A DNA stretch of 42,604 nt from NCBI GenBank assembly GCA_016926595.1, contig JAFGOG010000556.1, forward strand, positions 1 through 42,604, read 5' to 3'. The stretch is from Anaerolineae bacterium. GTDB lineage: Bacteria > Chloroflexota > Anaerolineae > JAAYZQ01. The notes beneath the pieces are model-generated. The model searched no databases. It was not told the DNA's origin and saw only the letters and a program-made list of their open reading frames with translations. Positions 14,334-41,936 of the stretch are shown in pieces. A program made the position numbers and the translations under genes. The stretch's first letter is position 1, and every line of letters starts with the position of its first letter.

Positions 14334-15203
14334 TCAGGTTGGCGTCTGGTCCCTCACCTGTTGGGCATAGGCCGCGACGCGCCGATCCATGTCGAGAGGA
14401 TAGGTATAGCCCAACTGGCTGGCGACCTCGATGCCGACCCACCGGAAGAGAGCCAGGGTACGAAAGAAGGCCTCCCAGTTTTCCTCGATCCCGGCTCCTG
14501 CGTAGGTGCTCTCTACCTGGGACCAGATCTCGGGCGGCAGGCGTTTCTTCAGCCCTCTACCCAGGAAGCCCGTCGGCGCCGACCAGCCGTGATCGAGTTC
14601 CATCCGCCAGTCGAGCATCTGGCGCAGGAAATTGTGTTTCATGTCAAAATCCAGGCAGTACTTGGCTGGCAGCAGTTCGTCACGGCGCAAACACTTGGCC
14701 ACAAAGGGCACGTCGCTGAAAAAATCTGCGACCACTTTTTGGTAAACCGCTTCGCTGGGCGGCGACGGGATAGTGGCGCTGTACGTGGGCGCAGAGAGGC
14801 CCTCGGTCAGGCGGTCTTTATCCATCAGGACGACGTACCCGAGGTCCAGGTCGGCCGGAAGCGCAGGTGACTGGACGATCTGGCGCAGCAACTCGACCGG
14901 CCAGACGGTGAAATCGACCTTGAGGCCGTCCTGGAACAGCACGACGTTGCCCAGCTGCGCAATGTCATAGTCCGGCGCGGGGTGGATAGGGTCCCAGTAA
15001 GCCACGAGCACCCGGCCGAAACCCTCCAGCCAGTTCTTGTCCTCATAGAAAGGGTGGATGTCCTCGACCACCAGGATGATGTCATAGTCGGACAGGTCAT
15101 CGGCGCAGTTGGCGCGCGAGCCGGTCAAAAGCATGGCGCGGACGGCATGCTGCTCCTGGCCCCAGCGGATCATACGTTGAATGACAGCATCTTCCAAGAC
15201 CAT
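14334..15203 (-). CDS. ANT(6)/AadE-like aminoglycoside nucleotidyltransferase family protein
   Basis: The protein is 289 aa, the normal length of the family. The nucleotidyltransferase signature is intact: GSRAN (28-32) followed by SDYDI (38-42), with the two metal-binding Asp residues D39 and D41, and a third acidic strand in KVDFTVWP. The C-terminal helical part contains CLDFDMKHNFLRQMLDW and GFLGRGLKKRLP, typical of ANT(6)-I and its chromosomal relatives. ANT(6) enzymes adenylylate streptomycin. Chromosomal homologues in environmental bacteria may have other acceptors, so resistance is not proven. It stands about 80 bp downstream of the efflux operon. Confidence 0.88.
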   Translation of the reverse strand: MVLEDAVIQRMIRWGQEQHAVRAMLLTGSRANCADDLSDYDIILVVEDIHPFYEDKNWLEGFGRVLVAYWDPIHPAPDYDIAQLGNVVLFQDGLKVDFTVWPVELLRQIVQSPALPADLDLGYVVLMDKDRLTEGLSAPTYSATIPSPPSEAVYQKVVADFFSDVPFVAKCLRRDELLPAKYCLDFDMKHNFLRQMLDWRMELDHGWSAPTGFLGRGLKKRLPPEIWSQVESTYAGAGIEENWEAFFRTLALFRWVGIEVASQLGYTYPLDMDRRVAAYAQQVRDQTPT

Positions 15204-22948: not shown

Positions 22949-23689
22949 ATGGATATCTTGCAGACACAGAACCTCCACAAGCAGTACATCATGGGCGAAG
23001 TCACCGTGAACGCCTTGCGCGGCGTGGATTTTGTCGTACAGCAGGGCGAGTTCGTGGCGGTGATGGGGCCATCCGGTTCCGGCAAATCGACGCTGCTGCA
23101 CCTGCTCGGCGGGCTGGACGCGCCCAGCGATGGCGAGGTAACCCTCGGCGGGCGGCGGCTGGCGCATCTGAGCGACGATGAGGTGACGATCATCCGGCGG
23201 CGGCAGATGGGGTTCATCTTTCAGTTCTTTAATTTGCTGCCCACCCTCAGCGCGGCGGAGAACGTGGCCTTGCCGCTGCTGATCGATGGCAAGCGCATCG
23301 AGGACTATGCCGAGCGCGTTAGCTCACTGCTGGCGTTGGTCGGGCTGGACGACCGCGCCCAACACCGCCCCGACCAGCTCTCCGGCGGGCAGCAGCAGCG
23401 GGTGGCAATCGCCCGCGCGCTGGTCACCGAGCCAGCCATCGTCCTGGCCGATGAGCCAACCGGCAACCTCGACCGCAAGGTGGGTCGCGAGGTGCTCGAT
23501 CTACTGCGCCGCGCCTGCGACGAAAAGCAGCAGACCATCGTCATGGTCACCCACGACCCGTTCGCGGCGGCCTATGCCGACCGGGTGGTCTTTTTGCGCG
23601 ATGGCAACGTCGTGCACGAATGGCGCCCCAACGGCGATCAAGAGAGCGTGCAAGCCATCATTGACATCATGGCCGGGTTGGAAGTGTGA
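22949..23689 (+). CDS. ABC transporter ATP-binding protein partnering the cyclase-fused permease
   Basis: The start at [13 protein letters not shown] (22949) has a GAAAGGAAAAAAG site and is the standard N-terminus of the family; the upstream 26 codons overlap the promoter leader. The 246-aa protein has Walker [11 protein letters not shown]-loop FIFQFFN, signature [14 protein letters not shown], Walker [10 protein letters not shown] and H-loop VTHDP, all intact. It belongs to the MacB/LolD/BceA group that works with FtsX permeases. Its stop overlaps the GTG start of the giant permease-cyclase (GTGA), so the two are made together. Confidence 0.95.
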
Positions 23690-26600
23690 ACGACAAACGA
23701 CAAACGTCAACCGTCAGACTAACAGGTTTCGCGTTCTGGCTCCTGGCCTGGCGCAATCTGCGCGCGCACCTCGCCCGCACCTTGTTGAGCGCGCTGACTG
23801 TCGCTCTCGGCGTGGCCATGCTGGTCGCCACGAGCGTGTTCCGCTCTGGCATCGAGGCGGCGTGGACGGCGGGCGCGAACAAGTTTGCCTTTATTACCGA
23901 GATCAGCAACCTCACTTTCGGCGGCGTCGGGTTGATGATGCTCGGCGCGGCGGGTTTTCTGATCTATAATGCTTTTGCGATGAGCGTGACACAGCAGCAG
24001 CGGCAGATCGGGATGCTGCGGTCGCTGGGCATGATGCGCGCGCAGGTCTTGCGCCTGGTGCTGGTAGAGGCGCTGCTCACCGGCGGGCTGGGGACGGCGT
24101 TGGGCGTTTTCGGGGGGCCGCTGGTAGGCAACGGCATCCTCGGCGCGATGGCTTACTTTGGCGTGGAGACAGGCCGGGGCAGCGCCTCGCCGGGCAGCAT
24201 CGCCCTGGCGGTCGCCATGGGCCTGGGGATCTCGCTGCTCTCGGCGCTGGTGCCGGCGCGCCGGGCGGCAGGGCTTTCGCCGCTGGAAGCACTGCGTGAC
24301 AGCGAACTGGTGGGGCAACGAGGCAGCGAGAAAGCGAGAAAGCGAGCCAGCGATTCAGCCAAGCATTCCCATTTGACGTTTCACGTTTCACGGTTGACGC
24401 TCGGCCTCGTGCTGCTCATCTCGCTGTGGGCCTACCTCGCCATCGCCCCCCCGGGCGAGTGGACCGGCTACCATCAGCCGTGGGACATGATCCTCTCGGC
24501 GATCCTGCTCTTTGTGTGGTGGATCGGGCTGGTGCTGGTGACGCCGGCGTTACTGGGCGCGATCGTGCGCGGGCTGCGGGCTTTGCTGCGGCGCAGTCCT
24601 GGCCGCTGGCTGCGGGGTGGAATGGGCCGCCTGCTGGGAGACAACCTGGGCCGCGCGCCGGAGCGCCTGCACCTGACGGCGCTTACGTTCGCCGTCGGGC
24701 TGCTGATGATGGTCTCCACGGGCGGCTTTGTCTCGTTTTGCAACGATGTGATGGTGGGGCGCATCGCCGCGCAGGCGCTGCGCGAGCAGGCGTGGACCAT
24801 TTACCCGTTCAACCGCGTAAAGGGGCTGGGCCAGCTCCAGGGTTTCCAGGCTGACGCGCCCGCGCTCGAACCGGCGATCGTGGCCGAGATCGAGCGCCTG
24901 GCAGCGGGTCGCGCCACTGTGGAGCCAATGTATCTGGTTCCCGTGCCGGAGATCTCGGCGCCGTTCCCCGGCTTTCCCTCGATGCTCACCCTCGACCCGG
25001 AGATGCTGACACGCCCTGGACGGTTTCACATGGTCGAGGGAGACTGGGAGACGGCGATCCCCTTGCTGCGCGAAGGCTGCGGCATGCTCGTCTCCCCGGC
25101 GATCGCGGCCCGCCACGGCGCGGGAGTGGGCGAGCCGATCGCCGTGACCGGACGCAGCGGCCCGGTGAGCTGCGTTGTCGCCGCGACCGGCGCGGGCGGC
25201 TTTGCGCCCATGTCGTTCATCGGTCCCGGCGGGTTCGACCTGTTCGTCGTGCCAGGCCGGGCGCCCGATTCGCTCCAGGTGCGCCCGTTGTCATCCACAA
25301 CGGATGCGGACATCGCCGCGCTGAGTGCCGACCTGTACGCGCTTGCGGCGCGTTACGGCGATGACCGCGTCTTTGTCGCCCGCCCGGAAGACGAGTTGAA
25401 GGCCATCACCGGCACAAGCGACCAGTTGACGCAGATCATGAATGGCCTGCTGCTGCTGGCAGTGGGCGGGGGAGCGCTGGGCAGTGTGAACACCACGCTG
25501 GTGAGCATCCTGGAGCGGCGGCGCGAACTGGCGCTGCTGCGCGCCCTCGGCGCGACACGGCGGCAGATCGCGAGGCTGATCGTCGGCGAATCCGCCATCA
25601 CCGGGCTGCTCGGCGCGCTGCTGGGCCTGCTGGCAGGTTGGGGCACGATCGCCATCTATGTCCTGGTTTATGGCGGGGTCACCTTTGGGCAGGTGGACTT
25701 GCCCCTGTGGACGGCGGTGGCCGAAGTGAGCTGGCCTGCCCTGCGCGGCGGCATGCCAGGATTGGTCGCCGCGCCGCTGTTGGCGGGGCTGGCGGCTTAC
25801 ATGGTGGTGCGGAGGATGGATTTTACCACCGTCAAACGTGAACCGCTGACCAGGCCGCCTTCACGCTTGCCGTTTTACGTCTCGCTCGCCCGGCGCAACC
25901 TCCAGGGGCACACGCTGCGCACGGTGCTCAGCATCGCCACCGTCGCCTTGGGCGTGGCGACCATCGTGGCAACCAACGTGGTGGGCGCGGGCGTCCGTAC
26001 GGGCATCGCCGAGGCGGTCGAGTCCGTGGCTTTTGTCACCGACATGGTGCAGGTGGGACTAAACATCGCCAGTGGGATGATCCTCGTGGCGGCGGGTTTT
26101 CTCATCTACAATGCCTTTGGGATGGCGGTGGTGCAGCGGCGACAGCAGATCGGGTCATTGCGCGCGCTGGGGATGACGCGCCGCCAGGTGCTGCGGCTGG
26201 TGCTGGTAGAGGCGCTGGTCGTGGGTGGGCTGGGGGCCACACTGGGGCTGCTGGCGGGGCCGCTGCTGGGGACAGGCATCCTCAGCGCCATGCGCGCCGC
26301 CGATTACGAGGTAGGTGCGGGGCAGGTCTCGCTGCCGGGCCTGTTGCTCGGCCTGCTCCTGGGCCTGGGGATCGCGGTGGGAGCGGCGCTGCTTCCGGCG
26401 CGGTGCGCGGCGCGGGTCGCGCCGTTGGAAGCGCTGCGTGGCGAAAATACAGTGCGTACTGCGTATTCCGTAGACCGTAACGGCGCATTGCGCATCACCT
26501 TGACTGCGACGCTTTGCATTGGGATGCTCGTTTATCTGGTCTTTTTCCCACCTGGACGCTGGACGGTGGAACCGTGGAACTATGCGCTGCCCATCGCCTT

Positions 26601-29600
26601 GAGCGCGGTGTGGCTGGGCGCGGGGCTGCTGCTGGCGCCGGCGCTCATCGGCGTAGCGGGGCACGCGCTGCGCCAGCCCTTAACGCGGCTGGCCCGCGTC
26701 GCCGGCAGCCTCGTCGCCGACAACCTGCGGCGCGACCGGCAGCGGGTGACGCTGACAGCACTCACGTTTGCTGTGAGCGTGCTAACCATCGTGAGCATCA
26801 CCGGCATTTTCAACTTTTTCGGCCGGGAACTCATCACCTATGCCCAGGAAACGCACCGGGCGGCGGGTTTGCAGCACGGCTGGGCCATCGGCGCGGCGGA
26901 TTTTACGCTTGGTGTCGCCGATCCCGGCGGGATGATCGCGCCGCTCAAGCCGGAGGTGGTTGCTGAGGTGCGCGCCGTGGTCGGCGAGCGGGGCTATATC
27001 GGCACCGAACACGCGCTGGTCATCCCCGAACTCGCCGCCGTGCTGGTGCCCAATTACTTTTCCAGCATGCTCGATCTCGACCTGCTGCGCGTGCCGGGCA
27101 ACGTGACGCTTTTGGAGGGTGAGCTAGAGGCGGCGTTGGCGGTCATGGAAGCAGGCTGCGGCGTGCTGCTCGCCCCCGGCGCGGCACAGCGGCACAGCGC
27201 GGGTGTGGGCGACCACCTCACCATTCAAAGCGATCGCGGCCCGCTGGAATGTGAGGTTGCCGGGGTCGTCGCCTTTGGGATGGTGCCGGTGTCGGTCATC
27301 AGCCCGGCGGTCAAAGGCTATTTCAACGTGGGCGAGCCAACCACCGTGATCGTCTTTCCAAAGGCGGGCGTAGACCGGGCCGCGCTCGAAGCCGACCTGC
27401 TGGCCATCGACGAAAAATACGGCGACGACGCCTGGCTGATGCGCACCGACGAATCCATCCAGACGGTGACCGAGAGTGCCGACCGGGTGTTGGGGCTAAT
27501 GGGCGGCCTGCTGGTGCTGGCCATGGTCGCCGCGGCGTTGGGCACGCTTAACACGACAGCGATGAGCGTGGTCGAGCGGCAGCGCGAGTTAACCCTGTTC
27601 CGCACGATTGGCGCGACACGACGGCAGACGATGACCCTGGTGGTGGGCGAAGCAGCACTCACCGCTCTGCTGGGAAGCGTGCTGGGCCTGCTGGCCGGAT
27701 TGGGCATAAGCGCGATCTTTGTCCTGGCACATGGCGGCAACAACTGGGGCTATCCTGGCATCGATCTTCGGACCGCGACGCTGCGTTCCTGGAAGCCGGC
27801 GCTGCACAGCGGCCTGTGGGGGCTGATCGCCGCACCCTTGTTGGCCGCAGGCACGGCCTGGCTCGTCGTGCGCCGCGCTGATCTGGGTACGCCTGGCACG
27901 TATTCCGCATTCCGCCAGAACGAGCCACGCCATACGCAGTACGCAGTCAGCCGTGTCTTGGGCCTACGCGAGCGCTTTGTCCTCGGCGCCGCTGCGCTCC
28001 TGCTCATCCTGCTGTTCAGCCTGGTCGCGGCGGTGGTGGGTCACCAGCAGCAGTACATGGACGACGGAGCACGCCAACTGGCCATGCTGATGGCCCAATC
28101 GCAGGCGCAAGCGCTCGAACTGGGGCTGCCGGACGGCGCGACGACACTCGACCTGGGCGCACTCGGCGGGCAGCTGGATGCCGCCCAGTTGCTGCAGCTC
28201 CAGGCATTGCTGGAAGATGTGGGCGATACCGGTCTGGCAGGGTACACCGTCGCCGACCGTGATAATGTGGTGCTGCTGAGCCTCAACCCGCGCGAAATCG
28301 GCACGCTTGTCCCCCCACTGACCGATGCGACGCAAGCCATCGCCTGGTCGGAGCGCGAGGGCGAGAGGTGGGGCATCCACGCCACCGCGCCCATTCGCAA
28401 CAGCACCGGGGAGGTCGTCGGCGCGGTACGGATGGCGTTCGACCTGGCGTGGGTGCGGGAGGCACTGCGCGAGCTGCGTGGGACGCTGTGGGCAGTGGGC
28501 GGGGGCGTCAGCCTGTTGGCCCTGGCGTTGGCCTGGCTGCTGGCGACGCCGTTGGTGCGCGTCACCCAGCAGTTGTCCGTCCACGCGGCGGGCGTCGCAC
28601 GCGGGGAATACGTCCCCTTTGCCCGGGCGGGGCCGCGCGGGCGCAGCGCGGGTCGTTCCCGGTGGGCTTGGCTGGCGGCGCGCACCTCGCTGCGCGCCCG
28701 GTTCACCATGGCCCTGGTGGTCACCATCCTGCTGCTGGTGGGCAGCCTGGAGCTGTTCGCGCTGCCCATCCAGCGCCGCCACGTCGAAAAGACGCTGCTC
28801 GACGGCAGCACGGCGACGGTGGAGTGGCTGGGCGAGACCATGTCGGAGGCTTTGGGCCGCGACGACGGTTCTACAGCCGGCGAACTGGGTGCGGATTTCT
28901 CACTGGATCAACTGCTCTCCACAGCAGGCACGCTGGATTGGGGCCAGTTGCAGGCGCTCGGCGAGCAGTCTCGCCCGGACGCACTGGCCTACATTGCCCT
29001 GGCGGACGAGGAGGGCGTGGTCATCCTGTCCGACCAACTGGCGTTCGTCGGCGAGGAGGTTGGCCTCCCTGCCACGACCGAGGTCGCCGAAGAACGCTGG
29101 CGCAACGAGCCAATCTGGACGATCCGCACGTCCTTAACGCGCGGGCGCGGCGGCGAGCGCCTGGGGGCGCTGCAGATGGGCATGCGCCGCGCGGAGGTGG
29201 AGGGATTCCTGGATGAGAGCCGGCTCTTTTTCCGCCTGGCCGGGCTGGTCGCGCTGCTCGCCGGAGTGCTGCTGGCGCAGGTCATCGGCGGGACGGTCGC
29301 CGGGCCGGTGCAGGCGCTGGCGGCGAGCGCACGCCGTATCGCGGCGGGCGACCTGGACGTGCACTTTGCTGTCGGCGGGCAGGACGAAGTGGCCCAGTTG
29401 GCAGCGGCTTACAATACGATGGTCGCCGGGCTGCGCGAGCGCGAATGGCTGCGCGACTTGTTCGGGCGTTTTGTCAGCCAGGAGGTCGCCGAGGCCATCC
29501 GCACCGGGCAGGTGCGCCTGGAGGGCGAGAACCGCGTGGTCAGCGTGCTCTTTTGCGACATTCGCGGCTTTACGACACGCTCAGAGCGCCACACGCCGCA

Positions 29601-30108
29601 AGAGATCGTCACGCTGCTCAACGCTTACCTGCCCGTGGTCGTCGAAGCAGCACAGCATCACCAGGGCACGGTCAACAAATTTGGCGGCGACAGCACGCTG
29701 GTCATTTACGGCGCGCCGCGCCCACTGCAAGAAAGCGCGTACCAGGCCGTGTTGACCGCGTTGGAGCTGCGCGCCAACCTGGCCCGGCTCAACACCCACC
29801 TGGCAGCGAGCGGCAACGATCCGATCCGCATCGGGGTCGGGATCAACACCGGCGTGGTGCTCGCCGGGGCGGTTGGCCCGCACGAGCGGCAGGAATACAC
29901 GGTCATTGGCGATACGGTCAACCTCGCCTCGCGCATCGAGGCATTGAACAAAGACTATCCGGAGCACGACATCCTCATCAGCGGGGCCACCTACGAGGCA
30001 TTAGGCAGCCATCGCGCCGAGTTTACCTTTGTCGACCTGGGCGAGGTCGGCATCCGGGGCAAGTCGGGAGCGGTGCAGGTGTGGGCGGTGCAGGGGCAAG
30101 CTGGATAA
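23686..30108 (+). CDS. Giant four-FtsX ABC permease fused to sensor modules, HAMP and class III adenylate cyclase
   Basis: One uninterrupted 2140-aa frame starts at a GTG that overlaps the ATPase stop. Residues 1-720 and 730-1405 are two homologous FtsX permeases, each with two FtsX units. The coupling motifs are RQIGMLRSLGMMRAQ, RELALLRALGATRRQ, QQIGSLRALGMTRRQ and RELTLFRTIGATRRQ, with extracytoplasmic domains between. Two membrane-flanked sensor modules follow (about 1428-1630 and 1670-1875), then HAMP (about 1868-1920) and a cyclase domain (about 1945-2135). Both metal Asp residues (D1958 in FCDIRGFT, D2002 in KFGGD), the adenine-specifying pair K1998 and T2072, N2079 and R2083 are present, so it should be an active adenylate cyclase. 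Permease movement or sensor ligand probably controls cAMP output. Simple-repeat-like DNA lies in some linkers. Confidence 0.88.
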   Translation: MNDKRQTSTVRLTGFAFWLLAWRNLRAHLARTLLSALTVALGVAMLVATSVFRSGIEAAWTAGANKFAFITEISNLTFGGVGLMMLGAAGFLIYNAFAMSVTQQQRQIGMLRSLGMMRAQVLRLVLVEALLTGGLGTALGVFGGPLVGNGILGAMAYFGVETGRGSASPGSIALAVAMGLGISLLSALVPARRAAGLSPLEALRDSELVGQRGSEKARKRASDSAKHSHLTFHVSRLTLGLVLLISLWAYLAIAPPGEWTGYHQPWDMILSAILLFVWWIGLVLVTPALLGAIVRGLRALLRRSPGRWLRGGMGRLLGDNLGRAPERLHLTALTFAVGLLMMVSTGGFVSFCNDVMVGRIAAQALREQAWTIYPFNRVKGLGQLQGFQADAPALEPAIVAEIERLAAGRATVEPMYLVPVPEISAPFPGFPSMLTLDPEMLTRPGRFHMVEGDWETAIPLLREGCGMLVSPAIAARHGAGVGEPIAVTGRSGPVSCVVAATGAGGFAPMSFIGPGGFDLFVVPGRAPDSLQVRPLSSTTDADIAALSADLYALAARYGDDRVFVARPEDELKAITGTSDQLTQIMNGLLLLAVGGGALGSVNTTLVSILERRRELALLRALGATRRQIARLIVGESAITGLLGALLGLLAGWGTIAIYVLVYGGVTFGQVDLPLWTAVAEVSWPALRGGMPGLVAAPLLAGLAAYMVVRRMDFTTVKREPLTRPPSRLPFYVSLARRNLQGHTLRTVLSIATVALGVATIVATNVVGAGVRTGIAEAVESVAFVTDMVQVGLNIASGMILVAAGFLIYNAFGMAVVQRRQQIGSLRALGMTRRQVLRLVLVEALVVGGLGATLGLLAGPLLGTGILSAMRAADYEVGAGQVSLPGLLLGLLLGLGIAVGAALLPARCAARVAPLEALRGENTVRTAYSVDRNGALRITLTATLCIGMLVYLVFFPPGRWTVEPWNYALPIALSAVWLGAGLLLAPALIGVAGHALRQPLTRLARVAGSLVADNLRRDRQRVTLTALTFAVSVLTIVSITGIFNFFGRELITYAQETHRAAGLQHGWAIGAADFTLGVADPGGMIAPLKPEVVAEVRAVVGERGYIGTEHALVIPELAAVLVPNYFSSMLDLDLLRVPGNVTLLEGELEAALAVMEAGCGVLLAPGAAQRHSAGVGDHLTIQSDRGPLECEVAGVVAFGMVPVSVISPAVKGYFNVGEPTTVIVFPKAGVDRAALEADLLAIDEKYGDDAWLMRTDESIQTVTESADRVLGLMGGLLVLAMVAAALGTLNTTAMSVVERQRELTLFRTIGATRRQTMTLVVGEAALTALLGSVLGLLAGLGISAIFVLAHGGNNWGYPGIDLRTATLRSWKPALHSGLWGLIAAPLLAAGTAWLVVRRADLGTPGTYSAFRQNEPRHTQYAVSRVLGLRERFVLGAAALLLILLFSLVAAVVGHQQQYMDDGARQLAMLMAQSQAQALELGLPDGATTLDLGALGGQLDAAQLLQLQALLEDVGDTGLAGYTVADRDNVVLLSLNPREIGTLVPPLTDATQAIAWSEREGERWGIHATAPIRNSTGEVVGAVRMAFDLAWVREALRELRGTLWAVGGGVSLLALALAWLLATPLVRVTQQLSVHAAGVARGEYVPFARAGPRGRSAGRSRWAWLAARTSLRARFTMALVVTILLLVGSLELFALPIQRRHVEKTLLDGSTATVEWLGETMSEALGRDDGSTAGELGADFSLDQLLSTAGTLDWGQLQALGEQSRPDALAYIALADEEGVVILSDQLAFVGEEVGLPATTEVAEERWRNEPIWTIRTSLTRGRGGERLGALQMGMRRAEVEGFLDESRLFFRLAGLVALLAGVLLAQVIGGTVAGPVQALAASARRIAAGDLDVHFAVGGQDEVAQLAAAYNTMVAGLREREWLRDLFGRFVSQEVAEAIRTGQVRLEGENRVVSVLFCDIRGFTTRSERHTPQEIVTLLNAYLPVVVEAAQHHQGTVNKFGGDSTLVIYGAPRPLQESAYQAVLTALELRANLARLNTHLAASGNDPIRIGVGINTGVVLAGAVGPHERQEYTVIGDTVNLASRIEALNKDYPEHDILISGATYEALGSHRAEFTFVDLGEVGIRGKSGAVQVWAVQGQAG
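24311..24400 (+). repeat. Repeat-like linker DNA inside the permease-cyclase gene
   Basis: Short iterations (GCGAGAAA GCGAGAAA GCGAGCCA, then GACGTTTCACGTTTCACGGTTGACG) encode residues about 209-239, a basic loop after the first FtsX unit. Related short iterations occur at 23687-23715, 26445-26480 and 27897-27955. The composition looks like intergenic repeat DNA rather than conserved coding sequence. Confidence 0.5.
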
Positions 30109-34793: not shown

Positions 34794-37700
34794 TCATCCC
34801 GCCCGAGTCTCACCCGGGAACAGATCGCCGCTGCGCCCGCGCAGGAACAGCACCGGCGCGGCCCAATCGCTGCCGCCGGTTCCCTGCTCGGCGGTCACGG
34901 CGATGCGCGCCTGGTCGATGGCCTCATCGATTGGCTTGCGGCGGGCCAACATGCGGTAAAAATCGGCCGAAAATACCTGCGCGCCGCGATCGCTGACCGG
35001 GAACTGCATCGCCACCACGGCAGTCACCCCGGCCTGCACCAGCGCCGGGGCCAGACCCACCCAGGCGCGCTCCGTCCCCCATTCGCACGCCCGGACGGCG
35101 TCGCCGGCGGTCAGGCAGGCGTTGAGCATGGCAAAACGCGGCATCTGCCCGCCGAACAACCGGCAAAACGCGGCCGCATCGCGCCAATCGGCCCGCTTGT
35201 CCTCGTCTTCCAGCGCCAGGTAGCCGCCTCCGGCATCGACGGCGCCGTGGCCGACAAAATGCAGCAGGTGGCACGGCTGGTCGAGCAGGTATTCGCGCAG
35301 CGCCGGCGCGGTCGGCGGCACGAGGACGTGCAACTGCATTTGCCCGGCCTCGAGCAGCGGTTGCAAGACAGCCCTCAAGGCGGCGATCTCGGCCTGCGTG
35401 TCGAGCGTCGCCAGGTCTTGCGGGCTGGCGACGACGGCCAGCATGTGCAGGGGCGGCGACAGCGCGAGCAGCTGCGCCGGACGGGCCACGGGCAGGTGAC
35501 GCACCACCGGCGACCGCGCGCTGAGGGCCAGGAACTCGCCCGCTTGCGGGTCATAGAGCAGCTCCCAGGGCAACCCGGCCAACGCACCAGATTCGACCCT
35601 CAGCCGCAGCCGCAGCCCCTGGCCTTGCACGGTCATCGCCCGGCTGGCGGCAAAACAGGCGCCAACCCCCTCCCGGAACAAGGCCTCGAACAACTGCCGT
35701 CCCCAACCGCGCAGCGTTGACTCGCTGACCGCTCCGCCATTCACCTGCGCCTGGATCGTCGACCAGTCGAACTCGGAGAGGATGAAAGCGCCCTGCGCTT
35801 CGCCGGCCGGCGCATCGAGGACGCGCACCGGGTAGGCGTCGCGGTGCGGGTGGCCGATCAGCAGGTCGAAATCGGCATAGGTGCGGCTCAACGTGGGCAG
35901 AGCAGCCGTCAGGACGGCCGTGCCCGGCTCGGCGACGTCGACCCGCGTCCGGTAGGTGATGCGCACCACCTCGCCGGCCTCGTCGCGGTAATCGACGTGG
36001 ATCCCCAGCGGCACCGGCCCGCTGACCAGTGGGCGGATCGAGAACGCGGTTTGAACGGACTCGGATGGCGCCAGGTCGCGCAGCGCCCTGGATTCGTCGA
36101 GTTCGCCGGTGAAATCGTCGGGGATGTGATGGACGACGATCTGGTGGGCCACGCCGCCACCCACATTTTTCAGGCTGAAGCGCAGCAGTGCGTACTGGCC
36201 TTGGGTCATTTGCTCCGGCGGCGCGACCGCCATCTCGATGTAGGGCCGGCGCCGGCAGCGGGCGACCTGCACGCGACATGGGGCGGCCTGGGCCTCGTCG
36301 CCGGCTTTGACCCAACACGCCTCCGCCGCCGACCAGAGCGCAGCCTGGTCACCCTCTCGCGCCGGCGCTTGCGCCTGCATCTTGCGCGCCGCTTCCATCC
36401 ATGCCACCGCCGCGGCGGCGAACTGTCCCTGCCGCTGTTCCAGTTCGCCGACACGCTGCCAACGGCCGGCCTGGCGGTGGCACGCGACCGCCTCCGCGGG
36501 CAGCCCGGCCTGCTCGTACAGGTCCCCGGCCCGGTCCCAAACGGCGGCCTTTTCATAGCACGCGGCCGCCTGGACCGGCAGCCCGGCCCGCTCGTAGAGC
36601 GAGGCTGCCTGCGGCCACGCTTGCGCGGCCCGGTACGCAGCGGCGGCGCGCGCCAACTCCCCCAGCGCCTCCCAGCTCTCGGCGGCGCGCGCCCACTCGC
36701 CCAGCCGCTCCGACAGTTCGGCGGCCTTACGACGTTGGCCCGCCTCGGCGTAACAGTCCCTGGCTTCGGCCCAGGCTCCGGCCGCCTCGAACAGCGCGGC
36801 GGCTCGCGCCGGGTCGCCCTGCCGCCGGGCCATCTCGGCCACCTTGAGCGGCTGTGCCAGCCGGGCGTAGCAGACCTCGGCGCGGTCATAGGCCCGGGCC
36901 TGCTCGTAAAGCGGCGCGGCACGGGCCGGGTCGCCGGCCGCCCGCCATAGTTCGGCGGCGAGCAGCGGCTGGCCCAACCGCCCCTGGTAGACCTGCGCCG
37001 CCTCAACCAGCCGGCCGCGCCGGATGTGCGTCGATGCCGCCTCGGCCCAGCGCCCGCGTTGGGCATAGCCCTCGGCGCCGAGCACGCGCTCGACGGCGAC
37101 CAGGTTGCCATCCCGGTCGGCAGCGATGACCCGCTCGTCGCTCAATGTCGGGGCGACCTCGATCCCGTGCGCCAGCTCGACGCGTTCCATCTCGCGACCG
37201 GAATCTGCATCCAGGATGGTAAGGCGATGGTCGTGCGCAGTCACATAGACCACGCCGTCGGCGGCCGCGGGCGCGGCAGCGACGCGTCCCTCGGTGGCAA
37301 AGACCCAGGCCTCGTCGCCGTCCAGGCTCAGCGCGTGCAGGCCGTCGCGCGCGCCGACAAACAACCGCGTGCCATCCGTGGCCGGCGCGCTGAGCGATTT
37401 GCCCTCCGCACAGACTTGCTTTTGCCAACGCAGCACGCCGCTCTGCGCATCGAGGGCGATGACCCAACCGGTGGTGGAGACACAAACCAGCCGTCCCCCA
37501 ACCCGTACCGGTGTTCGATCCAGCCAGGCATCGGGATCGCCTGCCAGGTCAAAACGCCAGCACGGCGCGCCGTCCAGGCCGACGGCGAGCAGGTGGGGGC
37601 CGCGGCAAGAAATGTAAGCGATGCCGCCGGCAACCAGCGGCGCGGCGGGCGTGGCCACCACCGGCAGCGGGATGCGCTTTTGTTCATCCCCGTTGGCCGC

Positions 37701-38177
37701 GTCCAGCACGACCAGGACCTTGCTGTCCACGGTAACGTACACCTGCCCGCCAACCGCTGCCGGCGCGGAGACGCGCTGCCCGCCCGGCGACCAGGTCCAG
37801 CGCTCGTTTCCGGCCGCGTCCAGGGCACACACCCCACCTGCACCGCGCAGCAGGTCGGTGCTGTAGGTGGAGACCAGCAGCAGGTCGCCCGCCCGGGCCA
37901 GCCCGCCGACGGTAGCGTGCTCGAACCGCCTATGCCAGCGCGGCTGCCCATCGGCCAGCGCTAAGGCGTGAAGCGCCCCCGGCCGGGTGGGGACGAACAG
38001 CAGGCCCAGGGCAACGAGCATCTCGCCCGGCGTCTGCGCCAGCGGCGTCTGCGCCAACGACGTCTGCCAGCGGGGAACGAGGAGCGCCCGCTCCGGTCGA
38101 GGCGATCCGCAGCGGGGGCAAAAGCGCCTGTCCGGCGCGAGGTAGGTTTGACAGTGGGCACAAAAATGGATGCTCAT
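34794..38177 (-). CDS. Zn-ribbon, PQQ-like beta-propeller, helical repeat and CHAT protease-like protein
   Basis: The protein is 1127 aa. A zinc ribbon has C6-x2-C9 and C20-x2-C23. A PQQ/WD-like propeller (about 40-375) has repeated G.vYv...D..l.aLda.sG motifs. A region of TPR-like helical repeats (about 380-650) is rich in units such as AAELWRAAGDPARAAPLYEQA. A beta-sandwich (about 680-790) follows. The CHAT caspase-like domain (about 830-1127) has catalytic H977 in HFVGHGAVD and C1021 in MLNACLTAGD, so it looks active. CHAT proteases with sensor repeats act in bacterial conflict and gasdermin-type systems. No gasdermin or other obvious substrate is adjacent. The nearest system is the DGR cassette and kinase about 1 kb upstream, which suggests but does not prove a link. 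Confidence 0.86.
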   Translation of the reverse strand: MSIHFCAHCQTYLAPDRRFCPRCGSPRPERALLVPRWQTSLAQTPLAQTPGEMLVALGLLFVPTRPGALHALALADGQPRWHRRFEHATVGGLARAGDLLLVSTYSTDLLRGAGGVCALDAAGNERWTWSPGGQRVSAPAAVGGQVYVTVDSKVLVVLDAANGDEQKRIPLPVVATPAAPLVAGGIAYISCRGPHLLAVGLDGAPCWRFDLAGDPDAWLDRTPVRVGGRLVCVSTTGWVIALDAQSGVLRWQKQVCAEGKSLSAPATDGTRLFVGARDGLHALSLDGDEAWVFATEGRVAAAPAAADGVVYVTAHDHRLTILDADSGREMERVELAHGIEVAPTLSDERVIAADRDGNLVAVERVLGAEGYAQRGRWAEAASTHIRRGRLVEAAQVYQGRLGQPLLAAELWRAAGDPARAAPLYEQARAYDRAEVCYARLAQPLKVAEMARRQGDPARAAALFEAAGAWAEARDCYAEAGQRRKAAELSERLGEWARAAESWEALGELARAAAAYRAAQAWPQAASLYERAGLPVQAAACYEKAAVWDRAGDLYEQAGLPAEAVACHRQAGRWQRVGELEQRQGQFAAAAVAWMEAARKMQAQAPAREGDQAALWSAAEACWVKAGDEAQAAPCRVQVARCRRRPYIEMAVAPPEQMTQGQYALLRFSLKNVGGGVAHQIVVHHIPDDFTGELDESRALRDLAPSESVQTAFSIRPLVSGPVPLGIHVDYRDEAGEVVRITYRTRVDVAEPGTAVLTAALPTLSRTYADFDLLIGHPHRDAYPVRVLDAPAGEAQGAFILSEFDWSTIQAQVNGGAVSESTLRGWGRQLFEALFREGVGACFAASRAMTVQGQGLRLRLRVESGALAGLPWELLYDPQAGEFLALSARSPVVRHLPVARPAQLLALSPPLHMLAVVASPQDLATLDTQAEIAALRAVLQPLLEAGQMQLHVLVPPTAPALREYLLDQPCHLLHFVGHGAVDAGGGYLALEDEDKRADWRDAAAFCRLFGGQMPRFAMLNACLTAGDAVRACEWGTERAWVGLAPALVQAGVTAVVAMQFPVSDRGAQVFSADFYRMLARRKPIDEAIDQARIAVTAEQGTGGSDWAAPVLFLRGRSGDLFPGETRAG

Positions 38178-38192
38178 GTTCTTGCCTCTTTA

Positions 38193-38214
38193 CGCGATTG
38201 GAAATCGCGGCTAC
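38193..38214 (-). repeat. REP element, copy 1 (type A)
   Basis: CGCGATT (38193-38199) and AATCGCG (38203-38209) form a hairpin with a GGA loop, followed by GCTAC. On the minus strand it reads GTAG, then the hairpin, the layout recognised by RAYT transposases. Identical copies occur at 38872-38893, 38908-38929 and 41915-41936. Confidence 0.85.
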
Positions 38215-38224
38215 GTTTCACTCT

Positions 38225-38247
38225 GTAGCCGAGGTTTCCCAACCTCG
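38225..38247 (+). repeat. REP element (type B)
   Basis: GTAGCC is followed by the GAGGTT/AACCTC hairpin (38231-38236 and 38241-38246). It has the same GTAG guide as type A but a different stem. A second copy lies at 38265. Confidence 0.75.
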
Positions 38248-38264
38248 CGCGCTGAGAAATCACA

Positions 38265-38309
38265 GTAGCCGAGGTTTCCTAACCTCGCGCGATTGGATAT
38301 CGCGGCTAC
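38265..38309. repeat. Inverted REP pair (REPIN-like): type B followed by type A
   Basis: A type B unit (GTAGCC plus GAGGTT/AACCTC hairpin, 38265-38286) runs directly into an inverted type A unit (38288-38309, one changed loop base). The GTAG guides point outward from the two ends. The RAYT stop codon lies within the last bases of this element. Confidence 0.78.
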
Positions 38310-38842
38310 TCAAAATCCAAATCAACGATCGACTCTGGCGCTGTATGTCCCCAACCCAATTCGTACCAACCACGCTTCACATACTCATTGAAACTGGTCT
38401 GCACATAGTCTTCAGGCCGGGACACATATCCATGTTTGACCGGGTTATAGTGAATGTAGTGCAGGTGATTAGCCCAATCCTGTTCACTACGAATGACGTG
38501 ATCCCAAAATCCACGCTGCCATAAGGTCGTTTCCTCCGAAATCTGGCGTTGCGTCTTGTAATTCCGGGTGAAATTCCGCTGCACCGAGTGCATCAGTTTG
38601 CTGATGTTGGTCGTCTCGGGCACAAAGATCAAGAGATGAAAATGATCCGGCATGAATGAAAAAGCGTGCATGGTAAAAGGATGGTACTCTTGAACACGAT
38701 GCAGCGTTGCGCGCAGCAGGTTTGTGTTCGTCTCGTCGGCGAAAAGCGGCCTTCGCTCCCGCGTGACACAGGTGATAAAGTAGTAGGCATTAGGAACGTA
38801 CAAGCGTCGGATTCTGGCGCGAACAGGGTCTTGGGTGGTCAT
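38306..38842 (-). CDS. REP-associated tyrosine transposase (RAYT, TnpA_REP)
   Basis: The start at MTTQDPVRAR (38842) gives a 178-aa protein; the longer frame would read through a REP element. The HUH motif is DHFHLL (H67, H69) and the catalytic Tyr is in YIHYNPVKHG (Y132), so the single-strand DNA nuclease site is complete. RAYTs are domesticated IS200/IS605-type proteins that recognise and spread REP hairpins with a GTAG guide. REP hairpins lie on both sides of this gene: two upstream, several downstream. The stop codon is inside a downstream REP. The gene lies between the CHAT gene and the DGR template repeat. Confidence 0.92.
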   Translation of the reverse strand: MTTQDPVRARIRRLYVPNAYYFITCVTRERRPLFADETNTNLLRATLHRVQEYHPFTMHAFSFMPDHFHLLIFVPETTNISKLMHSVQRNFTRNYKTQRQISEETTLWQRGFWDHVIRSEQDWANHLHYIHYNPVKHGYVSRPEDYVQTSFNEYVKRGWYELGWGHTAPESIVDLDFE

Positions 38843-38871
38843 ATCTGTCCTCAAACAAAACAGTTGCCTCA

Positions 38872-38893
38872 CGCGATTGGAAATCGCGGCTAC
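38872..38893 (-). repeat. REP element, copy 2 (type A)
   Basis: It is identical over 22 bp to the unit at 38193-38214 and lies 30 bp upstream of the RAYT start. Confidence 0.88.
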
Positions 38894-38907
38894 GCTACCG
38901 ATCCTGG

Positions 38908-38929
38908 CGCGATTGGAAATCGCGGCTAC
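38908..38929 (-). repeat. REP element, copy 3 (type A)
   Basis: It is identical over 22 bp to the units at 38193 and 38872, in the same orientation, 14 bp from copy 2. Confidence 0.88.
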
Positions 38930-38941
38930 AGGAGGCCGGGT

Positions 38942-38980
38942 GCCCTGCCCCAGGGCCACTCAGGGCCGAGGGGGCAGGGC
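38942..38980. repeat. 10-bp inverted repeat downstream of the DGR template repeat
   Basis: GCCCTGCCCC (38942-38951) is the perfect reverse complement of GGGGCAGGGC (38971-38980), with 19 nt between. It lies about 130 bp beyond the end of the template repeat in the direction of its transcription and could end or stabilise the template RNA. Confidence 0.55.
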
Positions 38981-39109
38981 GATTCTGTATTTGCCCGGAG
39001 CAAAGCAGGGCTTTGCCCGCGGCCAGGGACCGCCGGCGCTCCATTCTTTCGGGCAATGGCTCGCCATCCCACGATGGACGAGATTCGGGCCCGGCGTCAA
39101 GCCACAGAT

Positions 39110-39235
39110 GGATCGGACGCAGCGAAAACCCACATTGTTGTTCGAGTTGGATGGATCGTTCCTGTTGCGATTGGCTGTACGAACGTTGTTCCTGGTGTTG
39201 TTCCACGAGCCGCCACGCAACACCCGCAGCGCACC
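39110..39235 (-). ncRNA. DGR template repeat (TR)
   Basis: This 126-bp stretch aligns without gaps to 39842-39967. Sixteen bases differ and every one is a T on the plus strand here, that is an A on the coding strand: 39113, 39136, 39139, 39141, 39148, 39156, 39159, 39160, 39165, 39166, 39172, 39178, 39186, 39196, 39199 and 39202. None of the 96 non-A positions differs. Translated in the VR frame it is asparagine-rich (GGSWNNTRNNVR, NSNNNVGFR), as expected for AAY codons placed for mutagenesis. It lies 34 bp after the Avd gene and is transcribed from the minus strand. It would be copied by an error-prone reverse transcriptase and the cDNA used to rewrite the VR. Confidence 0.95.
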
Positions 39236-39269
39236 TTCCCGGCGTCCCCGCATCGCGGAGGCGGCCCAC

Positions 39270-39728
39270 CTAGCGGGCCGCCCGCGTTGATGCCGCTTTG
39301 GGGCGGGTCTGCCCGCCCGTATTCTTTTTCTTGCTCTCCTTGTTGATCCAGCCGCCGAGCAGGCGGCCCACCTCAGCCACCATGCGGCTGGCGTGCTCCC
39401 ACTGGGCAAAGGTCAACAAGTGGACCTCGTCTTCGGCCGACAGGCGCAGGTAGAAACGTACCTTGTCCAGTTCCATGTCGGCCTCCAGCAGCAGGCGCAG
39501 GCGCGAGCTGTCGCGCTTTTCCCACGCCGCCTGGATGAGCAGTTCGTGAAAGCGAAACGCCGCATCCTCGATCCGTTTGGCCAGGCGAAAGCGGTGCGCC
39601 TTGGGACAGGTGGTCATCCGCCCGCTCAGCCAGCGCAGCAGGTCATAAGTTTTGGCAAAGAGCGGCGACTCGCGCGCCGCAAAGGGCGGTCGTTCCGCTT
39701 CCAATGGCGCATCTTGTTCTGCTGACAT
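39270..39728 (-). CDS. avd: DGR accessory variability protein, Avd family
   Basis: The protein is 152 aa, basic and all-helical. The pattern LLRWLSGRMTTCPKAHRFRLAKRIEDAAFRF, LDKVRFYLRLSAED and ASRMVAEVGRLLGGWIN matches the four-helix-bundle Avd/23S-IVP fold; the last motif is close to the RFWLRF...LIAEVGRILGSWI sequence of the Bordetella phage BPP-1 Avd. Avd forms a pentameric barrel that binds the template RNA and the DGR reverse transcriptase and is essential for mutagenic homing. Its place between VR-bearing target and template repeat is the canonical DGR order. A lysine-rich tail (KESKKK) extends the C-terminus. The reverse transcriptase expected after the template repeat is absent. Confidence 0.92.
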   Translation of the reverse strand: MSAEQDAPLEAERPPFAARESPLFAKTYDLLRWLSGRMTTCPKAHRFRLAKRIEDAAFRFHELLIQAAWEKRDSSRLRLLLEADMELDKVRFYLRLSAEDEVHLLTFAQWEHASRMVAEVGRLLGGWINKESKKKNTGGQTRPKAASTRAAR

Positions 39729-39768
39729 CTTGCCCCTTTATTTCGCATATCGATACGCGCCGCGCGCG

Positions 39769-39791
39769 CCAGAGGGGGACACCCCCTCTGG
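39769..39791. repeat. Perfect 10-bp hairpin downstream of the VR
   Basis: CCAGAGGGGG (39769-39778) and CCCCCTCTGG (39782-39791) form a perfect stem with a 3-nt loop. It lies 50 bp past the 3' end of the VR, between target gene and Avd. DGRs often need a hairpin or cruciform just downstream of the VR for target recognition; it may alternatively end the target transcript, though no U tract follows. Confidence 0.65.
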
Positions 39792-39826
39792 ACTCCCCCG
39801 TTCCAGAAACCCAGGATCCCAGCAAC

Positions 39827-41758
39827 TCAGAACCCAGAACCGGAGCGGACGCAGCGAAAACCCACATAGTCGCTCGAGTAGGATGGACCGAGCCTGCCGC
39901 GATAGGCTGCACGAACGATGTTCCTGGAGTCGTACCACGAGCCGCCACGCAACACCCGCAGCGCACCGTTCTCCGGCCCTGCCGGATCCTCACGCGGCGA
40001 TTGAGCGTAATAATCCTCCCCATACCGATCGGCCACCCACTCCCACACGTTGCCGGCCATGTCCAGCGCGCCGTAGGGGCTGGCCCCGGCTGGCTTGCTG
40101 CCCACCGGCCAGGCTTTGGACCCCTGCCCGCAGCCGTTCCCGCTGCCGTCATCCATCACCGCGTACTCACAGGTGGCGGTCTGGTTGCCCCAGGGATAGG
40201 CTCGCCTGTCCGTCCCCCGCGCCGCCTTTTCCCACTGCGCCTCGGTTGGCAAAGATCGTCCGGCCCACGCGCAATACGCTTGGGCGTCACTCCAATCTAC
40301 GCCAACTACCGGTTGCGTGTCACCATTGTAATCTGAGTCACCGGCCAAATCTGACGCCTGGCACGCGCCTGTCTGCACGCACAGCCGGTATTGGGCGTTG
40401 GTCACCTCGGTACGGTCGATCCAGAACGCGTCCAGGGTGACCTCGTGTTGGGGGAACTCGTCGTCATACGCACCCTCATCGCCTGCCGCGCTGCCCATCC
40501 AGAACGTGCCCGCCGGGACAAAGACCATCTCCATGCCGTCCTTTTCCGGCGTCGCCGTTGGTTTAGGCGGCTCCGGGGTCATAGTCAGGGTTCCGGTCGG
40601 CGTGCTCGTCAGTGTGTATGTAACCGTTGGTGCCGGCGTGTGTTCGGTTGTTGGCGTCGGTGGCAACGTCGCCGTTGGTCCCGGCGTCAAGGTTGCCGTG
40701 GGCGTTGCGGTTGATAAACTAACTATCGCCGTCGGCGTCGGCTGGGGGCCGATCAGGCTGCCGATCCAGATGCCGCCAGCCAGGAGGGCCACGGCCAGGA
40801 CGCCAGCCAGCGCCCACCGCCCCCAGGCCGGTTTGGCGGTGGGGGACGGCGCCCTTTGCGCTGGCTCCGGTTCGTGCCAGGACGGTGGCAGCGCCCTTCG
40901 CGCCAGCTCCGGTGCGGGCCGGGGTGGCTGGGCTGCCTCGCGCAGCGCCCCCACCAGCGCCGCCGCCGTGGGGTAACGATCCTGCGGCGCTTTGGCCAGC
41001 GCCTTGATCAGCACGCGGGTCACGCGTTCGGGCAGGCCGGCGCGGATCTGGCGCGGGTCGGGCGGGGGCAGGTTGAGGTGGGCGTTGAGCGTCGCCGGGG
41101 TGTTGCCCGGAAAGGGCACCCGCCCGGTCAGCATCTCGTAAGCCACGATGCCCAGCGCGTACAGGTCGGTCACCGGGCCAACCTCGTCCTTGCGGTTGGG
41201 GTCGGCCTGCTCGGGGGCCATATACTCGGGCGAGCCCAGGGTCATGCCCGGCGAGCTCAGGCTCTGGCTGCCCGCCATGGCCTTAACCAGGCCAAAGTCC
41301 ATCAAGGTGACGTGCAGCCGCCCCTGCTGCGCTTCGACCATGATGTTGGCGGGCTTGACGTCGCGGTGCAGCACGCCCTGCCGGTGGGCATAGTCCAGCG
41401 CGTCGGCGATCTGAGATAGGATGGCGATCGCCTGGGATAAGGAGAGCGGGCCGCGCCCGCGCAGCATGTCCGCCAGGGTTTCACCTTCCAGGCATTCCAT
41501 GGCGATATACAGTTGGCCACCCTCCTCGCCGATATCGTGCACGGTGACGATGTGCGGGTGCCGCAGGCGGGCCACCGTTTTGGCCTCGTTCTGAAAGCGC
41601 GCCGCAAAGCCGGCCTCCCAGGTCAGGTGCGGGGCGAGGAGCTTGAGCGCCACCACGCGGTCGAGCGCGGTGTCGCGCGCGCGGTAGACGGCGGCAAAGC
41701 CGCCGCGGCCGATCTCGTCCAGGATCTCGTATTTGCCCAGTTGTTTGGGTTCAGACAT
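39827..41758 (-). CDS. Transmembrane Ser/Thr kinase with FGE/C-type-lectin-like domain, DGR target
   Basis: The protein is 643 aa. A Hanks-type kinase (1-275) has IGRGGFA, K39, HRDVKPAN (D133), DFG (D154) and APEQ, all intact. A membrane helix (about 314-337) is followed by a proline/threonine-rich stalk (339-404) and an FGE-sulfatase/SUMF-fold domain (409-640; GTFWMGS, RSLPTEAQWEKAARG, DMAGNVWEWVADRYG). The catalytic Cys pair of true FGE is missing from the GGSW...VGFRC region, so it should bind ligand rather than oxidise Cys. The last ~42 residues are the DGR variable repeat; 13 residues between 609 and 631 differ from the template. It is thus a receptor kinase with a rewritable outer binding face and an inner kinase. 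Extended -10 promoter upstream. Confidence 0.93.
   Translation of the reverse strand: MSEPKQLGKYEILDEIGRGGFAAVYRARDTALDRVVALKLLAPHLTWEAGFAARFQNEAKTVARLRHPHIVTVHDIGEEGGQLYIAMECLEGETLADMLRGRGPLSLSQAIAILSQIADALDYAHRQGVLHRDVKPANIMVEAQQGRLHVTLMDFGLVKAMAGSQSLSSPGMTLGSPEYMAPEQADPNRKDEVGPVTDLYALGIVAYEMLTGRVPFPGNTPATLNAHLNLPPPDPRQIRAGLPERVTRVLIKALAKAPQDRYPTAAALVGALREAAQPPRPAPELARRALPPSWHEPEPAQRAPSPTAKPAWGRWALAGVLAVALLAGGIWIGSLIGPQPTPTAIVSLSTATPTATLTPGPTATLPPTPTTEHTPAPTVTYTLTSTPTGTLTMTPEPPKPTATPEKDGMEMVFVPAGTFWMGSAAGDEGAYDDEFPQHEVTLDAFWIDRTEVTNAQYRLCVQTGACQASDLAGDSDYNGDTQPVVGVDWSDAQAYCAWAGRSLPTEAQWEKAARGTDRRAYPWGNQTATCEYAVMDDGSGNGCGQGSKAWPVGSKPAGASPYGALDMAGNVWEWVADRYGEDYYAQSPREDPAGPENGALRVLRGGSWYDSRNIVRAAYRGRLGPSYSSDYVGFRCVRSGSGF
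39842..39967 (-). repeat. DGR variable repeat (VR)
   Basis: This encodes about residues 598-640 of the kinase-FGE protein. It matches the template repeat with no gaps and 16 substitutions, all at template adenines (coding strand). The 21 bp at 39847-39867, the 3' end of the coding strand, are identical in both repeats and almost free of adenine; they are the likely initiation-of-mutagenic-homing region. The changes turn N, T and D into Y, D, S, I, A, G and L; one change is silent. Confidence 0.95.
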
Positions 41759-41869: not shown

Positions 41870-41914
41870 CCAAAGGCTGTTTCTTGCATCTTGCAACGCG
41901 TGGTTGTAGCGCTG

Positions 41915-41936
41915 CGCGATTGGAAATCGCGGCTAC
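41915..41936 (-). repeat. REP element, copy 5 (type A), distant from the RAYT
   Basis: It is identical over 22 bp to the three other exact copies and in the same orientation, but about 3 kb from the RAYT. It lies between the DGR target promoter and the terminal antitoxin gene, which shows dispersal of the element. Confidence 0.85.

What the first reader, a model, noticed from the sequence alone, without database searches (positions are those of the whole stretch)
39110..39967. A diversity-generating retroelement with textbook adenine-specific TR/VR divergence
The 126-bp repeats at 39110-39235 and 39842-39967 align without a gap. They differ at 16 sites and all 16 are adenines on the template coding strand (16 of 30 adenines changed, 0 of 96 other bases). 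If substitutions fell at random, the chance of all hitting adenines is below about 1e-10. Changes go to T, G and C. Together with the Avd gene between the repeats, this is a DGR that has been active recently enough to leave no other mutations.
Basis: seen in the sequence. Interest (0 to 1): 0.97.

Follow-up and report, generated by a model that had tools for sequence, protein, structure and literature searches.

The report
Hypermutation cassette missing its reverse transcriptase
A bacterial DNA cassette, probably from a Chloroflexota bacterium, carries a template, its scrambled copy at the end of a predicted receptor-kinase gene, the usual helper gene and a matching RNA spacer, but no reverse transcriptase on its 42.6-kb contig, so it is likely a diversity-generating retroelement that borrows the copying enzyme from elsewhere in the cell.

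Summary
In detail: 126-bp repeats, 16 mismatches, all at template adenines (16 of 30 A, 0 of 96 others; 2e-12). They are the TR and VR of a diversity-generating retroelement (DGR). VR ends a 643-aa kinase-TM-FGE gene; avd, a post-VR 10-bp hairpin and a match to the family's post-TR spacer RNA are present. In 101 RT-bearing relatives RT lies within 643 bp of avd; here a RAYT transposase follows the spacer. RT-less VR-avd-TR cassettes recur in Chloroflexota (Avd tree: at least 5 label changes). At one site beside queA they are RT-less in three species, yet each VR tracks its own TR at 8/9, 12/12 and 12/12 non-A differences, and avd is under purifying selection (dN/dS 0.10 for the pair measured). 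This implies continued homing with RT supplied in trans; 6 of 8 such genomes hold a DGR RT elsewhere. For the window, trans supply is inferred: no host genome is held, a recent relic is not excluded, and a misassembly at a REP repeat could hide an RT. New variant of a known kind.

The parts
39110..39235 (-). Template repeat (TR); A-only match extends to 39237
39842..39967 (-). Variable repeat (VR), residues 598-639 of the target protein
39827..41758 (-). Target gene, 643 aa: Ser/Thr kinase (10-262, HRD and DFG present), hydrophobic segment about 318-336 (predicted TM), P/T-rich linker, FGE-type domain (410-638) ending in the VR
   Evidence: Pfam; motifs and hydrophobicity; PDB relatives
39270..39728 (-). 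avd (accessory variability determinant), 152 aa
   Evidence: PF22296 67.3 bits; profile of its relatives matches 4dwl and 8ub7 (Avd)
39769..39791 (-). Post-VR hairpin, 10-bp perfect stem, 3-nt loop, 50 nt after the VR
   Evidence: a perfect stem of 6 bp or more within 120 nt after VR in 44 of 62 loci, 8 bp or more in 32 of 62; no shuffled control was run
38979..39118 (-). Post-TR spacer, matched by a covariance model built only from RT-bearing relatives (51.3 bits, E 4e-12)
38306..38959 (-). Y1 transposase ORF (RAYT-like by my reading) where a downstream RT would be expected; REP-like 27-bp repeats at 38188, 38283, 38867, 38903 (not part of the DGR)

Best explanation
This is an RT-less DGR cassette: it has its own template, variable repeat, avd gene, post-VR hairpin and a match to the family's spacer RNA, and it is likely diversified by a reverse transcriptase supplied in trans from another DGR of the same cell. 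Inferred steps: avd-TR-spacer is transcribed; the spacer RNA and Avd recruit the borrowed RT; the RT misreads template adenines; the cDNA replaces the VR and can change up to 16 residues at the C-terminal tip of a domain predicted to lie outside the cell on a receptor kinase. Shown here: the A-only TR/VR pattern, the cis parts, the absence of RT on the contig, and, in relatives, RT-less cassettes whose VR keeps following its own TR. Not shown: an RT in this cell, or activity today.
For: A-only divergence. No RT on the contig, against RT <=643 bp from avd in the 101 loci with RT within 4 kb. Spacer model from 19 RT-bearing loci (covariation score 0.407; slid controls 0.101-0.176) hits within about 40 nt of the TR end in the window and in 10 of 10 other RT-less or RT-remnant TR/VR loci given, and in L257 (35.3 bits) and L256 (20.2 bits). 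RT-less cassettes L058, L070 and L256 lie at one orthologous site beside queA; non-A TR differences are followed by the own VR in 8/9, 12/12, 12/12, and in 17/18 for the RT-less pair L016/L020; avd dN/dS 0.10 (dS 0.84, L058/L070) and 0.16 (L016/L020). Plain gene conversion would also erase the A differences, so it does not explain the pattern. RT-less VRs fit their own TR (0-1 non-A mismatch) and not the TRs of RT-bearing DGRs in the same genome (6-22 non-A mismatches over 26-119 aligned bases, 5 genomes). Of 8 RT-less genomes 6 hold a DGR RT elsewhere.
Against: No host genome is held, so no RT can be shown for this cell. G176 and G333 (RT-less), and G231 (on a 4.67-Mb contig) and G362 (RT remnant), show no full DGR RT elsewhere yet have A-only TR/VR, so a recently frozen relic looks the same; G333 holds one partial RT match (E 2e-26) that I judged to be another family. 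The relatives are mostly draft MAGs. L016, L020 and L058 each carry one non-A VR mismatch. The spacer model misses or barely scores 10 of 33 RT-bearing sources. avd dN/dS between the window and L001 is 0.48, at 50% identity, so purifying selection is not shown for the window's own avd. Avds of the window's clade (P0002-P0013) are known only as proteins.
Confidence: 0.62

Rival explanations
1. Frozen relic: a once complete DGR lost its RT recently, perhaps by REP/RAYT insertion, and the VR is now fixed.
For: The Y1 transposase and REP-like repeats sit directly after the spacer. Relatives with RT remnants between VR and avd exist (L132, L133, L141, L257); G231 and G333 show no DGR RT elsewhere. 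PMC10907252 (sections 7 and 18 read) describes MITE-like arrays replacing RT genes.
Against: avd, spacer and hairpin are intact and 0 of 96 non-A sites changed; in L058/L070 the RT-less state predates an avd divergence of dS 0.84, yet VR tracks TR.
Confidence: 0.25
2. Ordinary DGR with RT just downstream of TR; the assembly was joined wrongly at the 27-bp REP repeat at 38903-38929.
For: RT-downstream order exists in 11 of 117 labelled loci; the REP unit has 5 copies in the window and lies about where such an RT would begin.
Against: 27 bp is shorter than common reads; RT-less cassettes recur elsewhere, in L058 and L070 directly before queA.
Confidence: 0.11
3. Not a retroelement: a duplicated FGE C-terminus that diverged by ordinary mutation or selection.
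For: The two copies are 87% identical (110 of 126).
Against: All 16 changes at A (2e-12); avd, spacer match and hairpin present.
Confidence: 0.01

Closest known systems
BPP-1-type diversity-generating retroelement (VR, avd, TR, RT)
   Same: A-specific TR/VR pair, Avd family (profile match to 4dwl and 8ub7), post-VR hairpin, structured post-TR spacer; parts as described in PMC12875486 (passages read)
   Different: no RT beside the TR; target is a cellular kinase-FGE protein
Degenerate DGR loci 4 and 5 of Thiohalocapsa PB-PSB1 (PMC10907252; abstract, sections 5, 7, 8, 18 and passages read)
   Same: RT missing at the locus after mobile-element activity; trans diversification proposed; CLec targets with kinase, CHAT, NACHT, TIR domains in that genome
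   Different: there the VRs match another locus's TR; here each RT-less cassette keeps and follows its own TR, avd and spacer, and the state is shared by species
Partial DGRs of Nanoarchaeota (PMC4372165; passages read) and remote variable proteins of cyanobacteria (PMC7517822; passages read)
   Same: targets away from RT; cyanobacterial targets are most often kinases
   Different: the nanoarchaeal ones are only target, VR and cis elements; ours has TR and avd. Whether cyanobacterial remote loci hold templates I did not see
RT-bearing Chloroflexota DGRs fetched here (such as L002, L024, L045)
   Same: avd, TR directly after avd, spacer RNA
   Different: RT lies between VR and avd, or in others after TR

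Membership tests
Diversity-generating retroelement | TR/VR pair differing only at TR adenines | tested here: met
   16 of 16 at A
Diversity-generating retroelement | DGR reverse transcriptase at the locus | tested here: not met
   none in 42.6 kb; 2.9 kb upstream and 39.3 kb downstream of avd are held
Diversity-generating retroelement | Avd accessory gene | tested here: met
   PF22296
Diversity-generating retroelement | hairpin downstream of VR | tested here: met
   39769-39791; its function was not tested
Diversity-generating retroelement | structured spacer RNA after TR | tested here: met
   model R1, 51.3 bits
Diversity-generating retroelement | VR in a C-type-lectin/FGE ligand-binding domain | tested here: met
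   PF03781; FGE enzymes and the Treponema variable protein 2y3c by sequence; the fold itself was not predicted
Diversity-generating retroelement | mutagenic homing in living cells | not testable with these tools
   needs population reads or a bench assay
Functional formylglycine-generating enzyme | catalytic cysteine pair after the RGGS motif | tested here: not met
   the aligned enzyme 6muj has two Cys there and the target has none; that the pair is catalytic is recalled

The most novel reading that the evidence does not exclude
RT-less DGR cassettes are a stable, recurrent class of non-autonomous retroelement in Chloroflexota: each keeps its own template, spacer RNA and Avd and shares a reverse transcriptase made elsewhere in the cell, so that one enzyme drives a network of separately templated, hypermutating immune-like receptors (kinase, TIR, CHAT and NACHT fusions).
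Probability: 0.5. Interest if true: 0.75.

Novelty: new variant of a known kind. Interest (0 to 1): 0.6.

Why it matters
DGR surveys mostly start from the RT (recalled; PMC8144416, passages, says its approach would miss remote targets and PMC6642488, passages, counted partial DGRs only with TR and RT), so cassettes with a template but no RT escape them. If an RT works in trans on another cassette's spacer RNA and Avd, the hypermutated repertoire of these bacteria is larger than RT counts suggest, and a spacer RNA model gives a way to look for such cassettes. It makes testable whether RT-Avd-RNA pairing is specific or shared.

Tried and rejected
Host genome search for an RT: no genome held. Close genome relatives of the window: the best glutamate dehydrogenase identity among 298 class genomes was 71% (G009); its order holds one genome, without an Avd match; G001's order holds two. 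The viral-contig scan gave only distant Avds (22-38% identity in the listed best segments) and was not used further. Rfam gave nothing for the spacer (one sub-threshold miRNA match elsewhere). A first alignment of 33 spacers gave no consensus structure; later ones did. tblastn of 67 relatives' RT ORFs against the window gave 57 rows at E<=1; in the part printed one was strong (E 1e-29), but it lies in the window's FGE domain, so I take that ORF to hold FGE residues too, and the others printed were E 0.015 or worse. A single origin of the RT-less state is not favoured by the Avd tree (6 changes, 5 forced), which rests on 119 columns with many open forks. Plain gene conversion was rejected because A differences persist. 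Of the 14 avd hits without RT, 5 showed no TR/VR and were not counted as cassettes (at least two of them sit at contig ends), and one (G005:C11) is cut by the contig start. Of 333 relatives the tool kept the best 80.

Full report
Observation. A scan of direct-repeat diagonals of the window finds this pair only, 128 bp with 17 A changes and no other. VR codes for residues 598-639 of a 643-aa protein. The window is the whole contig (42,604 bases).

Anatomy. On the reverse strand the order is target gene with VR (41758-39827), hairpin (39791-39769), avd (39728-39270), TR (39235-39110), spacer match (39118-38979), then a Y1 transposase ORF among REP-like repeats. The target has a protein kinase domain with HRD and DFG, a hydrophobic segment at about 318-336, a P/T-rich linker and an FGE-sulfatase domain. 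The FGE enzyme aligned carries two cysteines after RGGS that the target lacks; the Treponema denticola variable protein 2y3c also matches. The template could encode about 10^15.7 protein variants.

The missing part. A profile of 40 DGR RTs finds nothing in the window's ORFs of 60 aa or more; tblastn adds no credible RT piece in the rows printed. I labelled 117 loci (window, 80, 26, 10; some are the same place fetched twice): RT upstream of avd 78, on the opposite strand 12, downstream 11, absent 9 (one of them, L046, cut by the contig start), and only a remnant or partial match 7, of which L023 and L118 are near a contig end. RT was looked for within 4 kb; in the 101 loci with RT the gap between the RT and avd matches is at most 643 bp. 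In a class sample of 298 genomes, 99 avd matches lie in 65 genomes and 14 have no RT start within 5 kb: 5 of the 14 are RT-less cassettes with a TR/VR pair (G001, G002, G003, G112, G176), 3 keep an RT remnant with a TR/VR pair (G134, G231, G037), 1 is cut by the contig start, 5 show no TR/VR.

RT-less cassettes in relatives. Adenine/other mismatches are 17/0 (L001), 15/1 (L016), 15/1 (L020), 8/1 (L058), 17/0 (L070), 22/0 (L131), 17/0 (L134), 10/0 (L256). Targets by Pfam are kinase-FGE (L001, two VRs), TIR-FGE (L016), CHAT-FGE (L020), NACHT-FGE (L058, L070), TIR-NACHT-FGE (L131) and FGE alone (L134). L058, L070 and L256, from three genomes, share the site beside queA. Their TRs differ pairwise at 9, 12 and 12 non-adenine sites, and both VRs follow their own TR at 8, 12 and 12 of these. 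L058 and L070 align in one stretch from VR through spacer into queA, so I infer that RT was already absent in their ancestor; L256 has about 350 bp more between spacer and queA, so for it this is less sure. avd dN/dS is 0.10 at dS 0.84 (L058/L070) and 0.16 (L016/L020); for window/L001, at 50% identity, it is 0.48. In the Avd tree the RT-less label needs 6 changes, 5 of them forced by well-supported branches; L058+L070 are sisters (SH-aLRT 100), L016+L020 (91).

Spacer RNA. From 19 RT-bearing loci two helices were read, one starting next to the TR end and one before GGGCAAATA. 80.2% of cells pair and 40 cells have changes on both sides; with the partner slid by 1-3 columns 36.1-51.4% pair and 8-16 cells do; 0 of 500 shuffles reach the paired share, the double-change cells or the covariation score, but 74 of 500 reach the number of pairs with a double change and 232 of 500 the number of pair types. 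I chose the pairs by eye on the same alignment, guided by RNAalifold, which favours them. Model R1, built without any RT-less locus, hits the window and all 10 other RT-less or remnant loci by the TR (24.9-79.1 bits; two further matches there, at E 0.05 and 0.25, are chance-like), L257 (35.3), L256 (20.2, E 0.001) and the edge-cut L046/L139 (87.6), but not L135 and L136, which have avd without TR/VR. Of 33 RT-bearing sources 23 match at E below 0.01 and 10 do not (where RT-less L070 was the 34th source).

Where the RT could come from. DGR RTs lie elsewhere in G001, G002, G003, G006, G007 and G112, not in G176 or G333 (where one partial match of another kind and one fragment turned up): 6 of 8 RT-less genomes. 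For RT-remnant genomes: G134 and G037 yes, G231 and G362 no, 2 of 4. In the class sample 67 of 298 genomes had an RT that I took as DGR-like (one search counts 106 with any RT match at E<=1e-15). RT-less VRs do not match the TRs of RT-bearing DGRs in their genome (6-22 non-A mismatches, in two cases over short overlaps of 26 and 41 bases), so what is missing is the enzyme, not the template.

Prior work. PMC10907252 (abstract, sections 5, 7, 8, 18, passages) describes RT-less degenerate loci whose VRs match another locus's TR; PMC4372165 and PMC7517822 (passages) describe partial DGRs and remote targets; PMC6642488 (passages) counted partial DGRs only if TR and RT were present; PMC12875486 (passages) gives the role of spacer, Avd and stem-loop in BPP-1; PMC7159879 (passages) ties DGRs to conflict systems; PMC10053308 (passages) added nothing on this point. 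In the listings of my searches of an open-access library I saw no report of conserved RT-less cassettes with their own TR; subscription papers are not covered.

Verdict. The DGR reading is right; the finding is a new variant: a cassette complete except for RT. That such cassettes stay active without a local RT is well supported in relatives and inferred for the window.

Noticed in passing
window 23686-30108 (+): 2140-aa ORF joining FtsX/MacB permease stretches, a HAMP domain and a nucleotide cyclase catalytic domain
   Followed up: no
window 34794-38177 (-): 1127-aa zinc-ribbon/PQQ-propeller/CHAT gene near the cassette; a possible effector partner
   Followed up: no
window 14334-15203 (-): Gene of the streptomycin adenylyltransferase family PF04439
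   Followed up: no
window 38188-38929 and 41910-41936: Five copies of a 27-bp REP-like palindromic repeat around the Y1 transposase gene and upstream of the kinase gene
   Followed up: partly
L001:2385-2498: A second VR (17 A, 3 other mismatches to the same TR) in another kinase-FGE gene about 7 kb from the RT-less cassette
   Followed up: partly
L133 (G231), L132, L141, L257: RT remnants between VR and avd with A-only TR/VR pairs; in G231 residues 7-45 and 304-352 of the RT profile remain and no other DGR RT was found
   Followed up: partly
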